Assembly (NCBI RefSeq): GCF_000284015.1
Contig: NC_016943.1
Location: forward strand, 2,893,541 to 2,957,540
Length of the DNA stretch: 64,000 nt
Origin: Blastococcus saxobsidens DD2
GTDB taxonomy: Bacteria > Actinomycetota > Actinomycetes > Mycobacteriales > Geodermatophilaceae
Direction of reading: 5' to 3'
This document shows positions 902-19,000 of this stretch, in pieces. The translations under genes and the position numbers were made by a program. The first letter of the stretch is position 1; each line of letters starts with the position of its first letter. The notes under the pieces were generated by a model. That model did not search any database, was not told the origin of the DNA, and worked only from the letters and a program-made list of their open reading frames with translations.

Positions 902-2458
902 CTACGTCTGCACGGTGGGGAGCACCTCGTCCAGCGCGTCGAGCGTGGTGAGCACGTCGGCCAGCGCACGGGTGGACCGCTCGGCGAGCGGGCGCAGCTG
1001 CCGGTACACGGCAACGGCGTCCGGATCCGGGAGGACCGGGTCGTGGACGGCGACCAGCGCCGTCGCGGCGGTCAGGTCGGGCAGCGCGCCCAGCGCGTGC
1101 CAGCCCAGCAGGCAGGCCCCCAGTCCGGTGCCCTCGGGCGAGTCGGCGATCCGGACGGGCAGGTCGAGTGCCGCCGCCAGCGTGCTGACCCACAGCGGTG
1201 AGGCCACCGCGCCGCCGGTCGCCCGCACCTCGCGCACCGGCAGGCCGGTTGCGGCGAAGGCGTCGCGGACCAGCGCCAGCTGCTGGCAGACCCCCTCGAC
1301 CGCGGCCCGTACGAGGTGCTCGCGGCGGTGCTCCCGGCGCAGGCCGAGGTAGGCCCCGCGCAGCCCCGACCGCCACCACGGCGCTCGCTCGCCCAGCAGG
1401 TAGGGCAGGCACAGCAGCCCGCCGCTGCCCACCGGCACCGTCTCGGCCTCGGCCAGCAGCCGGGCGTCGAGCTCGTCGGCGTCCTCCCCCACCAGGTCGG
1501 GCGCCGGCTCGAGGCCGGCGGCGAGCGCCTGCGCGGCCCACCGCACCACCGACCCGCCGTTGTTGATCGCGCCGCCCACCACCCAGGCCTCGTCGGTGAG
1601 CGCGTAGCAGAACAGCCGGCGGTCCGCGTCCACCGTCGGCGCCGGGACGACGACGCGCATCGCACCGCTGGTGCCCAGCGACACCGCGGCGACATCCGGC
1701 CGCACGGCCCCGATGCCGAGGTTGGCGAGCACGCCGTCCGACGCCCCGATGACCACCGGCAGGTCGGCCGGCAGCCCGGTGGCCGACGTGATCTCGGACC
1801 GCAGCCCGCGCAGCGCCGCCGTGGTGGGCAGCACCTCGCCCAGCTGCTCGGCGCGGACGCCGGCGATCTGCAGCGCCTCGCCGTCCCAGCGGCCGGCCCG
1901 GATGTCGTAGAGGCCGGTGGCCGAGGCGCAGGAACGGTCGACCACGTGCCGGCCGCCGCAGAGCGCCGCCACCACCAGCTCCTTGACCCCGCCCCAGCGC
2001 GGCACCCGGGCCACCCGGTCGGGGTCGGCCGCCCGCTCCCACGACAGCTTCACCAGGGGCGACATCGCGTGGACGGGGGTGCCGGTGCGGGCGTGCAGGT
2101 CCGGCGCCCGGCCGTCGGCGACCAGCGCCTGCGCCCACTGCGCGGCCCGGTCGTCGGCCCAGGTCAGCAGCGGCCCGAGCGGGCGGCCGTCGTCGTCCAT
2201 GGGTACCAGCCCGTGCATCGCCGCGCTGAGGGCGACGGCGACGACCCGGTCGCCCCGTTCACGGGCACAGGCTGCGACCGCGGTGAGCGCCTCGATCGCC
2301 GCGCCGACGAGCTCACCGGCGTCCAGCTCGGCGCGTCCGGGGGCCGGCACGAGCAGCGGGTACCCCACGCTGACGACGTCACGGACCCGCCCGTCGACGC
2401 CGGCGGTGACCGCTTTCGTCGACGTCGTCCCCGAGTCGAGACCGACGACGACGTCCAC
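902..2458 (-). CDS. gntK: gluconokinase, FGGY family
   Basis: Phosphorylates D-gluconate to 6-phosphogluconate with ATP in the cytoplasm. The N-terminus carries the FGGY phosphate loop (VVVGLDSGTTSTKAV). SAAMHGLVPMDDDGRPL, TWADDR and RTGTPVHAMSPL match the Bacillus-type GntK branch better than xylulokinases. A second ATP-site motif (SLGTSGAMRVVV) lies near the middle and a Gly-rich ATGGAVASPLW segment toward the end. I chose the GTG at 2458 because AGAGGG sits 7 nt upstream; in-frame GTG 2464 and ATG 2497 are alternatives. The product is about 518 residues, normal for the family. The gene ends in TAG (902-904), which matters because an in-frame TAG elsewhere in this window appears to be decoded. 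The permease gene follows directly, making a gluconate-use pair. Confidence 0.85.
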   Translation of the reverse strand: MDVVVGLDSGTTSTKAVTAGVDGRVRDVVSVGYPLLVPAPGRAELDAGELVGAAIEALTAVAACARERGDRVVAVALSAAMHGLVPMDDDGRPLGPLLTWADDRAAQWAQALVADGRAPDLHARTGTPVHAMSPLVKLSWERAADPDRVARVPRWGGVKELVVAALCGGRHVVDRSCASATGLYDIRAGRWDGEALQIAGVRAEQLGEVLPTTAALRGLRSEITSATGLPADLPVVIGASDGVLANLGIGAVRPDVAAVSLGTSGAMRVVVPAPTVDADRRLFCYALTDEAWVVGGAINNGGSVVRWAAQALAAGLEPAPDLVGEDADELDARLLAEAETVPVGSGGLLCLPYLLGERAPWWRSGLRGAYLGLRREHRREHLVRAAVEGVCQQLALVRDAFAATGLPVREVRATGGAVASPLWVSTLAAALDLPVRIADSPEGTGLGACLLGWHALGALPDLTAATALVAVHDPVLPDPDAVAVYRQLRPLAERSTRALADVLTTLDALDEVLPTVQT

Positions 2459-13644: not shown

Positions 13645-14676
13645 TCAGGTGCGGCTCTCCGAGGCCGCCTCCTCCGCGGCGGCGGCGGCCGCACGGGCTC
13701 GCTGCGGCTCCACCGTGTACCTGGGGTCCCTGGCGCTGGCCATGCCGGCCTCGTAGACCCCGAACCGGGTCAGCACCGCCCCTGCGGCCAGCAGTGTCCC
13801 GCTGGCCACACCGAGCACCCGCCGCCGGCCGGCGGCCAGCGCCAGACCCGCGCCCGTCGCCGTGCAGGCACGGGCCGCCCGCAGCAGCTTCCCCGCCTTG
13901 CCGTCGCGGTACGGCTCGCTGACGATGCCGTGCTCGTGCTCGATGCGGTGCATGGTGGCCAGGTCGAGCACCGCCCCCGCGATGGCGGTGCGTCGCGCCG
14001 GTCCGGCCTCCGTCACGGGGCTCAGCGCCGTGGCGATCCCTCCCCCGGCAGCCAGGGCGGAGCCCGCGAAGACGAACGGGAGTTCCCGGTGCGCCGCGTG
14101 CCAGGCGGGCACCGCGGTGTTGGCCAGCAGGGCCGCGGTGTAGGTCATCATGGGTCCGCCGAGTGCGGCGGCACCGGCCGACGAGACCGCGCGGACCAGG
14201 GGGAACCGGCCCAGCAGGTGGGCGCCCGCGGTCACGGTCGTCAGCGCGCCGAACGGGGCGAGGATCCAGGAGCCCACCGACAGCGGCGAGGTCGTCTTGA
14301 ACACCCGCAGCATGTTGAGGAAACGGCTCGGCCGCCCCAGGTCGTGGATGAGGAAACCCACCGAGGACAACGCCGTGCCGGCCGCGGTCAGGTGGGCCGC
14401 CCTGGCCATGGCGGATCGGCCGGTCATCTCGGCGAAGCAGCCGAGGACGGCCGAGGAACCCGCCGTTCCGCCCAGGAACAGGTACAGCGGGACGTCGGGT
14501 TGCTTCCACACCGGCGGCTTGATGACCGGCCGTCCGTAGTAGGAGGTGAACTCCGCCTCCTCGACCATGAGCGCCTCGCCGGCCCCCCGCCGGCGTCGCC
14601 GGTGCCGCTCCCGGCGCTGTGCCGGCGCACCGTCCGCGCGGTGCCACCCGGCGCCCGGGTCGCCGCCCGCGGTCAT
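13645..14676 (-). CDS. nrfD: NrfD-type membrane subunit of formate dehydrogenase
   Basis: A 343-residue NrfD/PsrC-family membrane protein that would anchor the formate dehydrogenase and pass electrons to quinone. After a basic leader (RRERHRRRRRG) comes the family start EFTSYYGRPVIKPPVW. Helices follow, including YLFLGGTAGSSAVLGCFAE, and the conserved loop DLGRPSRFLNMLRVFKTTSP. I chose ATG 14676, which overlaps the fdhB stop as ATGA. An in-frame ATG at 14568 with a better GAGG site would drop the basic leader. The last third is alanine-rich. The gene is the last in the operon. Confidence 0.85.
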   Translation of the reverse strand: MTAGGDPGAGWHRADGAPAQRRERHRRRRRGAGEALMVEEAEFTSYYGRPVIKPPVWKQPDVPLYLFLGGTAGSSAVLGCFAEMTGRSAMARAAHLTAAGTALSSVGFLIHDLGRPSRFLNMLRVFKTTSPLSVGSWILAPFGALTTVTAGAHLLGRFPLVRAVSSAGAAALGGPMMTYTAALLANTAVPAWHAAHRELPFVFAGSALAAGGGIATALSPVTEAGPARRTAIAGAVLDLATMHRIEHEHGIVSEPYRDGKAGKLLRAARACTATGAGLALAAGRRRVLGVASGTLLAAGAVLTRFGVYEAGMASARDPRYTVEPQRARAAAAAAEEAASESRT

Positions 14677-15710
14677 CGCCGCCATCCCAGGAAGGCCGTG
14701 GCGATCAGACCCACGGCCGCCGCCGCTCCGGCTGCCACGGCTCGCCACATCGCCGGCAGGTCACGGGTGGTGACCACCGGGTCCGGCGGCAGGCCGTAGA
14801 CCTCGGGTTCGTCGAGCAGCAGGAAGAATGCGCCGGCTCCGCCCACCCCGTCGGTCTCGTCGCGCCCGTAGAGCCGGGCGCCCTCGACGCCCTGCTCCTG
14901 CAGCGCGGCCAGCCGCTGGTCGGCGCGGGCCTGCAACACGTCCAGGTCGCCGAACTGGATGGACTCGGTCGGGCACGCGGACGCGCACGCCGGCTGCAGC
15001 CCGTCGGTGAGCCGGTCGTAGCACAGGGTGCACTTGAACACCCGTCCGTCGCTCTCCCGCTGGTCGATGACGCCGTACGGGCAGGCCGGCACGCAGTAGC
15101 CGCAGCCGTTGCAGATGTCCTCCTGGACCACCACCGTGCCGAACTCGGTGCGGAACAGGGAGCCCGTCGGGCAGACGTCCAGGCACGCGGCGTGGGTGCA
15201 ATGCTTGCAGACGTCGGAGCTCATCAGCCACCGGACCTCCCGGCCCTGCGACGGCGTCTGCTGCGGGGCGCTCTGCTCCGCCGTCGTGGCCGACGCCGGC
15301 ACCCGGTCGTGCACCACCGGAAGGTCCACCAGCGGACGGGCGCTGCCGAGGTCCTCGGGGCTGCCCACCGTCGGCATGGGCAGGTCGACGGTCCGGCTCT
15401 GCTCGATGAACGCGACGTGCCGCCAGCTGCTCGCCCCGAGTGTCCCGGTGTTGTCGTAGGACTCACCGGTCAGGCCCAGCACGTCGACGTTTCCGCGGGC
15501 GTCGTCCATCGGCAGCAGGTTCCACTCCTTGCACGCCACCTCGCACGCCTTGCAGCCGATGCACACCGAGGTGTCGGTGAAGAAGCCCACCCGGGCCGGG
15601 TGGTCGTCCCCGTAGCCACGGTCTCCGGTGACGTCGGGTACCGGGCCGAACAGCCGGTTCTCCGGATCCTGGCCCGTGAGGGCGGCGCTCGCCGAACTGA
15701 TCGGGGTCAT
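14673..15710 (-). CDS. fdhB: formate dehydrogenase iron-sulfur (beta) subunit
   Basis: A 345-residue ferredoxin-type electron-transfer subunit. Four 4Fe-4S motif groups are visible: CIGCKACEVACKEWN (Cys50, 53, 56, 60), CKHCTHAACLDVCP, CNGCGYCVPACP and CTLCYDRLTDGLQPACASACP. A single C-terminal helix (about residues 322-344) would fix it to the membrane. An insertion between the first and second cluster motifs (about residues 85-160) is typical of the FdnH/HybA-like group. ATG 15710 overlaps the fdhA stop as ATGA and has GAGGAG 6 nt before it. It should carry electrons from FdhA to the NrfD subunit. Confidence 0.9.
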   Translation of the reverse strand: MTPISSASAALTGQDPENRLFGPVPDVTGDRGYGDDHPARVGFFTDTSVCIGCKACEVACKEWNLLPMDDARGNVDVLGLTGESYDNTGTLGASSWRHVAFIEQSRTVDLPMPTVGSPEDLGSARPLVDLPVVHDRVPASATTAEQSAPQQTPSQGREVRWLMSSDVCKHCTHAACLDVCPTGSLFRTEFGTVVVQEDICNGCGYCVPACPYGVIDQRESDGRVFKCTLCYDRLTDGLQPACASACPTESIQFGDLDVLQARADQRLAALQEQGVEGARLYGRDETDGVGGAGAFFLLLDEPEVYGLPPDPVVTTRDLPAMWRAVAAGAAAAVGLIATAFLGWRR

Positions 15711-18700
15711 GATCGCTCCTCGATGGGCGCGCGCCCGTTGGGTCCCAGCAGCCCGCTCTCGACCCCCGCGCGCCGGCGGTACCCCTCCACGAACTCCACC
15801 AGCGCCGGGCCGCGCGGCCGCCGACCGGGCCGGATGTCGCAGGTGGCGACCTTGGACTCCTGGATGTGCACGTTCGGGTCCATCACCACGCCGAGCAGCT
15901 CGTTGGCCGAGTCCCCGGTGGTGATGCCGTTCTGGCCCCAGTGGTACGGGATGCCCACCTGGTGCACCTCGCGGCCGGCGATCCGCAGCGGTCGCATCCG
16001 CTCGGTGACCAGCACGCGCGCCTCGATCGCGCTGCGCGTGCTCACCAGGGTCGCCCAGCCCATGTGCTCCAGGCCGCGCTCCTCGGCGAGCTCCGGGCTC
16101 ACCTCGCAGAAGAACTCGGGTTGCAGCTCCGCCAGGTACTCCAGGCTCCGGCTCATGCCCCCGGCGGTGTGGTGCTCGGTCAGCCGGTAGGTGGTGAAGA
16201 CGAACGGGAACACGTCGTTCATCGCGGGGTTGGCCCGGTTCCAGGCGCCGCGGAGCTCCTTGCGCGCGGGGTTCGCCTGCCGCTCGTACAGCGGGTTGGG
16301 CACCGGCGACTCGGCCGGCTCGTAGTGCGTCGGCATCGGCCCGTCGGCGAGCCCGGCCGGCACGAACAGCCAGGCCTTGCCGTCGCCCTGCATGATGAAC
16401 GGGTCGGCGCCGCCGAGCGCGTCCTCCGCCTGGGCGCCCTCCGGCGGGACGTGGTCCGGCCGCTTGGTCGCCTGGAAGTCGGGGACGTCGGGGCCGCTCC
16501 ACCTGCCGGCGTCCTCGTCCCAGTAGACGTACTTCTTCCGCTCGCTCCACGGCTTGCCGTCCGGGTCGGCGGAGGCCCGGTTGTACAGGATCCGCCGGTT
16601 CATGGGCCACGCCCAGCCCCACTCCGCCGCGACGAGGTCCTGCTCGGTGTGCGGCTTCTTGCGGTTGGCCTGGTTCACCTCGTCGGCGAACACCCCGGAG
16701 TAGATCCAGCAGCCGCAGCTGGTCGAGCCGTCGTCCTTCAATGCGGTGTAGCCGTCCACCGCCGTGCCGTCCGGCCCGGTGCCGCTGATCTCCCGGAGCA
16801 CGGCATGGGCGCTGGGTTCGTCCACCGGTCCGTGCGTCGGGTAGTCCCATGTGAGGTCCAGGATCGGGCGGTCCCTGGGGTCGGGAGAGCCGGCCAGCTT
16901 CTCCTGGATGATGCGGCCGAGGTGGAAGTAGAACCACAGGTCGCTGCGGCAGTCCCCGGGAGGCTGGAGCGCCTGGGAGTGCCACTGCAGCAGCCGCTGG
17001 GTGTTGGTGAACGAGCCGTCCTTCTCCACGTGCGCCGCCGCGGGGAGGAAGAAGATCTCGGTGCCGATCTCCTCGGTGTTCAGCTCGCCGGTCTCGATCT
17101 CCGGGCCGTTCTCCCAGAAGGTGGCCGACTCGATCAGCTGCAGGTCGCGGACCACGAGCCACTCGAGGTTGGCCAGCCCGAGCCGCGCCATCTTGGCGTT
17201 GGCGTGCCCGACCGCCGGGTTCTCCCCGACCAGGAAGTAGCCGGGGACGGTGCCCTGGATCTGCTGGGCGATCGTCTGGTACGAGCTGTGGTCGCCGGTC
17301 AGCCGCGGCAGGTAGTCGAAGCAGAAGTCGTTGTCCGGCTGCGCGGCGTCCCCCCACCATGCCTTGAGCAGGCTGACCGCGTACTTCTTCATGTTGCCCC
17401 AGTAGCCGACGGTGCCGGCCGCCTCGGCGACGAAGTCGTCGAGGTCACGGTCCTCTTGCGCGTGCGGCATCGGGATGTAGCCGGGGAGGATGTTGTACAG
17501 CGTCGGGATGTCGGTGGACCCCTGGATGCTGGCGTGCCCGCGGAGCGCCAGGATGCCGCCGCCGGGCCGGCCCATGTTCCCCAGCAGCGCCTGCAGGACG
17601 CTGGCCGCCCGGATGTACTGGACCCCCACGGTGTGGTGGGTCCAGCCCACGGAGTAGACGAAGGCGCTGGTCCGCTCGCGGCCGGAGTTGCGCGTCAGGG
17701 CCTTGGCCACCTTCAAGAACAGCCGCGGTTCGATGCCGCACACCTCGTGCACCATCTCCGGGGTGTAGCGGGCGTAGTGCCCCTTGAGCACCTGGAAGAC
17801 GCAGCGCGGGTGCTGCAGCGTCTCGTCGCGCCGGGGTTTCCCGCCGACGGGGAGGCCGCCGCTGCCGGCCTGCTCCGAGGTGCCCTGATCGTGCTCCTCG
17901 GCGTCCGACTCCTCCTGACCGGGCTCGTTCCCGGCGGCCCCCGAGGCCCCTGGCTTGGGCGACTGGCGCTGGCCGGCCGCGGCGGTGACCTCGACCCCCT
18001 CGTACTGCCAGGTGGTCTCGTCGTACTGCCCCTTCTCCGGGTCGTAGCCGGAGAACAGCCCGCCGAGGTCCTCGGTGTCCTGGAAGTCCTCCCGCAGGAT
18101 CGCGGCCGCGTTGGTGTAGGCCACGACGTACTCGCGGAACTCCAGTTCGTGCTGCAGGACGTAGTTGATCAGGCCACCGAGGAAGGCGATGTCGCTTCCC
18201 GCGCGCAGCGGCACGTGCAGGTCGGCCAGTGCGCTCGTGCGGGTGAACCGGGGGTCGACGTGGATGACCGTGGCACCGCGCGCCTTGGCCTCCATCACCC
18301 ACTGGAAGCCCACCGGGTGGGCCTCGGCCATGTTGGAGCCCTCGATGACGATGCAGTCCGAGTTGGCCAGGTCCTGCTGGAACGTCGTGGCGCCGCCACG
18401 ACCGAACGAGGTCCCCAGACCGGGGACCGTGGAGGAGTGCTATATGCGCGCCTGGTTCTCGACCTGCACGGCACCCAGGGCCGTGTAGAGCTTCTTCATG
18501 AGGTAGTTCTCCTCGTTGTCGAGGGTCGCCCCTCCGAGGCTCGCTATCCCCATGGTCCGGTTGACCCGCTTGCCGTCGACCTCGTCCTGCCAGGTCTCCC
18601 GGCGGGTCTTCAGCACCCGCTCGGCGATCATGTCCATCGCCGTGTCCAGATCGAGGTCTTCCCACTCCGTGCCGTGCGGACGGCGGTACCTGACCTTCGC

Positions 18701-19000
18701 CTGGCGGGTCGCGCTGGTCACCAGGCTCTTGCTCGCCGCCCCCTTCGGGCACAGCCGGCCGCGGCTGATCGGCGAGTCGGGGTCGCCCTCGATCTGGGTG
18801 ACCTGCTCGTCCTCGACGAACACCCGCTGGGAGCAGCCGACGGCGCAGTAGGGGCAGATGCTCTGCACGACCCGATCCGCCGTGGCGGTCCGTGGCGTCA
18901 GGGTGTCGGTCCGCTTGCTGCGTACCGCCTCCCCCCGCCCCGACGGGTCCGAACCGGTCAGCTGCCGCACCACCGGCCACGCGTCCAGCCACGTCTTCAT
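15707..19000 (-). CDS. fdhA: formate dehydrogenase catalytic subunit, selenoprotein with Sec encoded by in-frame TAG
   Basis: Oxidises formate at a molybdopterin (Mo/W-bisMGD) centre. Annotated as one 1097-residue reading frame from ATG 19000 to TGA 15707, with the in-frame TAG at 18440-18442 (codon 187) read as selenocysteine. Residues 1-186 begin MKTWLDAWPVVRQLTG and hold the 4Fe-4S site Cys49, Cys52, Cys56 and Cys84. The TAG lies between VENQARI and HSSTVPGLGTSFGRGG, exactly where homologues carry the metal-binding Sec or Cys. Downstream, family blocks continue in the same frame (NMAEAHPVGFQWVMEAKARG; IHVDPRFTRTSALADLHVPL; SVGWTHHTVGVQYIRAASVL; PYHWGQNGITTGDSANELLG). No Tat signal is evident, so the active site probably faces the cytoplasm. 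A Gly/Glu-rich stretch at about residues 370-420 is a loop insertion. A simple caller would split this into 18440-19000 and 15707-18331. A nonsense mutation is the main alternative. Confidence 0.85.
18410..18428 (-). promoter_or_regulatory. bacterial SECIS-like hairpin just after the UAG codon
   Basis: On the minus strand the mRNA reads GGTCCCC, loop GGTCT, then GGGGACC: a perfect 7-bp stem with a 5-nt loop. It starts 11 nt after the TAG codon. The E. coli fdhF SECIS, as I recall it, has the same 11-nt spacing after UGA and a GGUCU loop read by SelB. Two more outer pairs (C-G, A-T) can form past a two-base bulge on the 3' side. The hairpin lies within coding sequence (TVPGLGT) and keeps the family protein sequence. 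Confidence 0.75.
18440..18442 (-). other. UAG codon proposed to specify selenocysteine
   Basis: The triplet CTA on the plus strand is TAG in the fdhA frame, at the position of the catalytic Sec/Cys. The context is CGC ATA TAG CAC TCC. Translation continues with conserved family sequence on the far side. Reading it as Sec needs a tRNA-Sec with a CUA anticodon, which is not in this window. Confidence 0.75.

What the first reader, a model, noticed from the sequence alone, without database searches (positions are those of the whole stretch)
18440..18442. In-frame TAG at the catalytic Sec/Cys codon of formate dehydrogenase: UAG-encoded selenocysteine
Seen: one frame of 1097 codons from 19000 to 15707 is broken only by TAG at codon 187, between VENQARI and HSSTVPGLG. 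In homologues this place holds the Mo/W-binding Sec (UGA) or Cys. Both sides carry full family sequence. The rest of the operon is intact, and there is no frameshift or decay. Known: UAG-programmed selenocysteine has been reported for Geodermatophilus and Blastococcus (work of Mukai and colleagues, 2016, as I recall), which fits this genome type. Inference: this is a selenoprotein read through a recoded stop, a rare variation of the genetic code.
Basis: partly seen in the sequence, partly recalled or inferred. Interest (0 to 1): 0.97.

Follow-up and report, generated by a model that had tools for sequence, protein, structure and literature searches.

The report
UAG-encoded selenocysteine in formate dehydrogenase
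An actinobacterium's formate dehydrogenase gene carries a UAG stop codon where relatives outside its family carry UGA or a cysteine codon, and its genome holds the matching selenocysteine tRNA, so the codon is likely read as selenocysteine, a change of the genetic code already reported for this bacterial family.

Summary
fdhA (19000-15707, minus strand) has one internal stop, TAG at 18442-18440, codon 187. The genome (4,875,340 bp, one contig) encodes a tRNA-Sec with anticodon CUA between selD and selA, with selB next. A SECIS-like hairpin follows the UAG, its loop GGUCU starting 18 bases after it; the stem covaries across relatives. In the family, 101 of 112 genomes hold this CUA tRNA arm, and 105 of 108 fetched fdhA loci carry TAG; none of the 105 read has TGA or Cys. 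In the outgroup genes read the codon is TGA (77) or TGC (7). The genome has at least four more TAG selenoprotein genes (second fdhA, two UGSC proteins, an AhpC-like protein). UAG-Sec in Geodermatophilaceae FDH and UGSC proteins was reported by Mukai et al. 2016, and in AhpC of Blastococcus saxobsidens DD2 by the Secmarker paper (2017). Less expected: fdhA copies of other gene lineages inside the family also carry TAG, so incoming genes seem to be brought to the host's code, and one relative keeps an orphan tRNA-Sec(UCA) beside its CUA one. Incorporation of selenium was not shown here.

The parts
15707..19000 (-). fdhA, formate dehydrogenase alpha subunit, 1097 codons, codon 187 = UAG
   Evidence: NF041513, 1975 bits, cut-off 1400
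18440..18442 (-). UAG codon at the Sec/Cys site, likely read as selenocysteine
   Evidence: TAG in 106, TGA in 77 and TGC in 7 distinct fdhA genes read
18410..18428 (-). SECIS-like hairpin: 7-bp stem, loop GGUCU (18417-18421), loop starting 18 bases after the UAG
   Evidence: 98.9% of cells paired, compensatory changes; loop GGUCU in 128 of 129 TAG loci; folding energy alone ordinary, z -0.35
18443..18445 (-). AUA codon directly before the UAG, invariant in the TAG-type fdhA genes read and otherwise very rare in them
   Evidence: 106 of 106 distinct genes; ATA is 8 of 2657 Ile codons further down the same genes
14673..15698 (-). likely fdhB, 4Fe-4S ferredoxin-type subunit (start not determined)
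   Evidence: PF13247 85.9 bits, cut-off 26.2; (a frame ends at 14673)
13645..14748 (-). likely membrane anchor subunit, NrfD family
   Evidence: PF03916 40 bits, cut-off 25.8

Best explanation
Codon 187 of this formate dehydrogenase gene is a UAG that is likely read as selenocysteine by the genome's own tRNA-Sec with a CUA anticodon. The inferred steps are those of the ordinary bacterial pathway: SerRS would charge the tRNA with serine, SelA (with selenophosphate from SelD) would convert it to Sec-tRNA, and SelB would bring it to the UAG while holding the hairpin whose loop starts 18 bases downstream, winning against release factor 1. Elsewhere UAG still ends genes: the AhpC-like gene and one UGSC gene of this genome end in TAG. 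The Sec residue is predicted to sit at the molybdenum/tungsten site of an FdhA-FdhB-NrfD formate dehydrogenase. Shown: codon, tRNA gene, sel genes, hairpin conservation, co-occurrence across the family. Inferred: charging, delivery, selenium in the product.
For: tRNA-Sec at G000:C1:1523196-1523287, 65.3 bits (cut-off 47), anticodon CUA, between selD (387.7 bits, cut-off 125) and selA (418.3, 267.9), with selB (293.1, 242.25) following. Family: exact CUA arm in 101 of 112 genomes; TAG in 105 of 108 fdhA loci; (list cut at its end) the fdhA rows of 60% identity or more that cover the codon have 1 TAG, except one piece of a broken copy in G079, out of frame there. Class sample of 394 genomes, list cut at its end: fdhA rows outside the family have TGA or no stop; one (G481) has TGA at the site and a TAG 457 codons later. 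Stem: 98.9% of 364 cells paired; covariation 0.297 against 0.115 in shuffles, 0 of 500 reaching it; slid versions at most 0.055. Loop codon GGT in 105 of 106 distinct TAG genes against 690 of 6911 Gly codons further down. Further TAG genes in the same genome: fdhA2, two UGSC, AhpC-like. UGSC in the family: 95 matches, 72 with 1 TAG, 23 with no stop, 0 TGA. Of 31 UGSC loci read, 18 of 19 TAG copies have 7 of 7 stem pairs at the same spacing and 1 has 5; 8 TGC copies, from genomes that also hold TAG copies, have 2 to 5; 4 did not match the motif.
Against: No protein-level evidence. The 45-base folding energy is not unusual for its composition (z -0.35; 70 of 200 shuffles fold as well); the case for the hairpin rests on covariation and fixed spacing. 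The AhpC-like gene does not show the same 18-base geometry by eye and fold. Two fdhA-TAG genomes (G097, G098, incomplete MAGs) have no exact CUA arm (a variant arm would be missed). ARAGORN labels the tRNA tRNA-Pyl, and pylS was not searched for.
Confidence: 0.95

Rival explanations
1. UAG is read as pyrrolysine: the CUA tRNA is a tRNA-Pyl and the residue is Pyl.
For: ARAGORN names the tRNA gene tRNA-Pyl, with a CUA anticodon.
Against: The tRNA matches the tRNA-Sec covariance model end to end at 65.3 bits and lies between selD and selA; outgroup homologues have TGA or TGC at the site; a SECIS-like hairpin follows.
Confidence: 0.01
2. A nonsense mutation: fdhA is a pseudogene and the TAG simply ends it.
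For: TAG is also a gene end in this genome. One relative, G079, does have broken fdhA copies.
Against: 910 codons beyond the TAG stay open and family-like, and the same TAG stands in 106 distinct genes read.
Confidence: 0.01
3. Near-cognate readthrough of UAG by an ordinary tRNA (Gln, Tyr, Trp) without selenium.
For: An invariant A stands before the UAG in the fdhA genes read; from recall, A at that place favours readthrough in some systems.
Against: A tRNA-Sec(CUA), sel genes and hairpin are present, and Cys-type UGSC paralogues lack the hairpin. The UGSC and AhpC-like TAG codons read do not share the A.
Confidence: 0.02

Closest known systems
UAG-programmed selenocysteine in Geodermatophilus and Blastococcus (Mukai et al. 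2016, Angew Chem, doi 10.1002/anie.201511657; not held; known here through PMC5330540 and from recall)
   Same: Same codon, same tRNA-Sec(CUA), same protein families (FDH and UGSC), same bacterial family.
   Different: No difference in kind.
Secmarker paper, PMC5330540 (passages, section 17)
   Same: [quoted passage not shown] The window's genome has such an AhpC-like gene and, by my recall of the DD2 chromosome size, may be that very strain; 30 family genomes have the gene, so the gene alone does not show it.
   Different: The passages read do not give the fdhA codon context or a count over the family.
Ordinary bacterial UGA-Sec formate dehydrogenases (E. coli fdhF, recalled; actinobacterial TGA genes)
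   Same: Same enzyme site, the same hairpin place and mostly the same loop (GGUCU in 64 of 79 TGA loci).
   Different: Codon and tRNA anticodon are changed together from UGA/UCA to UAG/CUA.

Membership tests
UAG-programmed selenocysteine decoding | TAG at the Sec site of selenoprotein homologues | tested here: met
UAG-programmed selenocysteine decoding | tRNA-Sec with CUA anticodon in the same genome | tested here: met
UAG-programmed selenocysteine decoding | selA, selB, selD present | tested here: met
   selB
UAG-programmed selenocysteine decoding | SECIS hairpin downstream of the codon | tested here: met
   folding energy alone not unusual; binding by SelB not testable here
UAG-programmed selenocysteine decoding | Selenium shown in the product | not testable with these tools
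   needs 75Se labelling or mass spectrometry
Formate dehydrogenase alpha subunit (actinobacterial) | Full-length match over the curated cut-off | tested here: met
   NF041513 1975 bits, cut-off 1400
Pyrrolysine decoding | tRNA-Pyl structure rather than tRNA-Sec | tested here: not met
   full-length tRNA-Sec match, 65.3 bits; ARAGORN's label is tRNA-Pyl
Pyrrolysine decoding | pylS and pylBCD in the genome | not tested
   no search made

The most novel reading that the evidence does not exclude
The family's code takes hold of foreign genes: formate dehydrogenase operons imported from UGA-Sec actinobacteria are brought to UAG after arrival. fdhA of G104, and of G001, G092 and G098, sits among TGA genes on the tree yet carries TAG, and in G104 the stretch just before the codon looks like the family's own fdhA, as if gene conversion had brought the host's codon in. 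An orphan tRNA-Sec(UCA) kept beside the CUA one in G058 could bridge the time in which an imported UGA gene is not yet rewritten.
Probability: 0.45. Interest if true: 0.7.

Novelty: already known. Interest (0 to 1): 0.45.

Why it matters
It supports, over 112 genomes of one bacterial family, that the selenocysteine codon has moved from UGA to UAG in most of the family and stays there, with tRNA and genes changed together. An annotation that knows only UGA as Sec codon would split these proteins in two. The fdhA copies of other lineages make it testable how a gene crosses a border between two genetic codes.

Tried and rejected
Invariant AUA before the UAG as a general UAG-Sec signal: rejected, since the UGSC TAG genes read have GAT or GAC and the AhpC-like genes read TGG there, and 9 of 77 TGA-type fdhA genes also have ATA. 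Pairing of that base with the hairpin: no convincing partner in a mutual-information scan.

Independent point-mutation origins of TAG: on the 189-row tree TAG needs three changes and well-supported branches force three; on a 61-row subset of it three, with two forced. On that subset the AU test rejects one clade for all 26 TAG rows (p 0.0013) and for the main clade plus G104 (p 0.0033), but not for the main clade plus G001/G092/G098 (p 0.37) (groups named after seeing the tree). Over the 150 bases before the codon G104 is 0.96 identical to its best resident TAG gene and 0.87 to its best TGA gene; over the 150 after it 0.94 and 0.95. In 60-base windows the resident side leads from -240 to -60, the TGA side at -90 to -30, with a tie at -60 to 0. 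So gene conversion is as good a reading as mutation for G104. For G001, G092 and G098 no such stretch was seen. Split trees leave G104 among TGA rows after the codon; the part before it is weakly resolved.

UGA at the catalytic site in the same genomes: 8 weak AhpC hits with 1 TGA were fetched; in the 5 that align across it the TGA is the gene's own end, in the other 3 it was not placed.

A genome-wide search with the fdhA-trained SECIS model found the two fdhA genes (75.6 and 69.2 bits; next 16.2) and missed the UGSC and AhpC-like genes, so it does not bound the number of selenoproteins.

The genome size of Blastococcus saxobsidens DD2 could not be checked in the library.

Full report
Observation. 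The minus-strand frame from 19000 to 15707 is open for 1097 codons except one TAG at 18442-18440, codon 187. Read through, it is a full-length formate dehydrogenase alpha subunit of the actinobacterial type. Downstream lie a 4Fe-4S protein and an NrfD-type membrane subunit, the order also annotated on two actinobacterial plasmids.

Machinery. The window lies in a one-contig genome of 4,875,340 bases. Two tRNA matches pass the tRNA-Sec cut-off: one at C1:1523196-1523287, 65.3 bits, anticodon CUA, and one at 49.7 bits that ARAGORN calls a tRNA-Ser. Beside the first lie selD on one side and selA, then selB, on the other, over their curated cut-offs. The window itself gave no tRNA and no Rfam match at gathering thresholds.

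Signal. After the UAG come 11 bases, a 7-bp stem and the loop GGUCU, which begins 18 bases after the codon; E. coli fdhF has the same loop and spacing as I recall. Over 52 distinct family sequences 98.9% of stem cells pair; column pair 18-30 appears as C-G, G-U, G-C and U-A. Folding energy alone is ordinary (z -0.35). The loop is GGUCU in 128 of 129 TAG loci (one AGUCU), in 64 of 79 TGA loci (the rest AGUCU or AGUUU) and in 1 of 7 Cys loci (some genes were fetched twice). In 106 distinct TAG genes the loop Gly codon is GGT 105 times, against 690 of 6911 Gly codons further down.

Family. Of 112 genomes of the family searched, 101 hold the CUA arm exactly; the 11 without are nine of genera g5-g7 and two incomplete MAGs, G097 and G098. 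Seven of those nine were read and have UCA; G067 and G071 were not read. TAG stands in 105 of 108 fetched fdhA loci; the other three are broken or cut at the site. In a sample of 394 genomes of the class the listed fdhA rows outside the family have TGA or no stop (the list was cut), six of them two TGA. Read as distinct genes, 77 outgroup fdhA have TGA and 7 TGC. Relatives found by sequence and bearing names: Blastococcus, Modestobacter, Geodermatophilus, Goekera, Klenkia, Trujillonella and a Frankiales MAG with TAG; Amycolatopsis, Streptomyces, Nocardioides, Actinomycetospora and others with TGA. That the window is from Blastococcus is inferred from these.

Other TAG selenoproteins. The same genome holds a second fdhA with 1 TAG, two UGSC proteins with 1 TAG each and an AhpC-like protein with TAG before P-Y-C. 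Across the family UGSC gives 95 matches in 54 of 112 genomes: 72 with 1 TAG, 23 with no stop, none with TGA or TAA. Of 31 UGSC loci read, 19 TAG copies have loops AGUGU or AGUCU and 7 of 7 stem pairs (one has 5), 8 TGC copies have 2 to 5, and 4 did not match the motif. The AhpC-like protein has TAG in 30 of the 44 genomes with any match (28 whole, 2 in split hits); the other 14 are weak, distant hits. Here UAG also ends genes: the AhpC-like gene and one UGSC gene end in TAG, so UAG has two meanings, told apart, it is inferred, by the hairpin.

Gene history. On a 189-row fdhA tree TAG needs three changes. The window's fdhA and the common family fdhA form one clade; G104, and G001 with G092 and G098, lie apart among TGA genes. 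The AU test on 61 rows rejects a single TAG clade (p 0.0013) and G104 with the main clade (p 0.0033), not the other three (p 0.37). G104 has a resident-like stretch before the codon. Stretches of 18 to 36 kb around fdhA in G104, G001 and G092 show fdhB and nrfD but no sel gene by tblastn; G098 was not looked at.

Literature. PMC5330540 (passages, section 17) states that UAG-Sec FDH and UGSC proteins of Geodermatophilaceae were reported by Mukai et al. 2016 and adds the AhpC of Blastococcus saxobsidens DD2. PMC10778597, passages, says that some species use UAG, UAA and sense codons for Sec; PMC7609411, passages, cites tRNA-Sec with sense anticodons. Mukai et al. itself is not held. A 2026 review, PMC13188914, passages, speaks of UAG only for engineered Sec insertion and as a stop. 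The listings (12 of 26 shown; 10 of 20 shown) name no paper on UGA-type fdhA genes turned to TAG; the library is only the open part of the literature.

Verdict. What I did not find in print are the scale of the count, the Cys-paralogue comparison, the fdhA genes of other lineages with TAG, and the orphan tRNA-Sec(UCA).

Noticed in passing
L070 (G058:C17) 1169-1263, minus strand: Orphan tRNA-Sec with UCA anticodon (81.8 bits) in a family member whose other tRNA-Sec is CUA; its 20-kb stretch has lower GC (0.70 against 0.75-0.77) and an IS21 istB gene, and no sel or fdh gene was found on that 69-kb contig by tblastn. The genome has one selB over the cut-off.
   Followed up: partly
L330 (Arthrobacter plasmid pYA7-1a) and L331 (Tsukamurella plasmid): Plasmid modules annotated fdh, 4Fe-4S subunit, nrfD, selD, selA, selB, with a match to the UCA tRNA-Sec between selD and selA: a portable selenocysteine trait. 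No match among phages.
   Followed up: partly
L104 (G104) and L083, L087, L088: fdhA genes placed among TGA-type genes on the tree but carrying TAG.
   Followed up: partly
window:18443-18445: ATA before the TAG in 106 of 106 distinct fdhA-TAG genes, although ATA is 8 of 2657 Ile codons further down the genes; TGA-type genes mostly have ATT (51 of 77) or GTT (16). Unexplained.
   Followed up: partly
G198, G242, G410, G272, G127, G252 (class sample): fdhA hits with two in-frame TGA codons; not fetched.
   Followed up: no
L084, L085 (G079): Two fdhA copies whose frame is broken near the Sec site in one family member.
   Followed up: partly
window:22065-25349, minus strand: Open frame with a haem-copper oxidase subunit I domain and a subunit III domain in one chain (PF00115 479 bits, PF00510 39 bits).
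   Followed up: no
   Followed up: no
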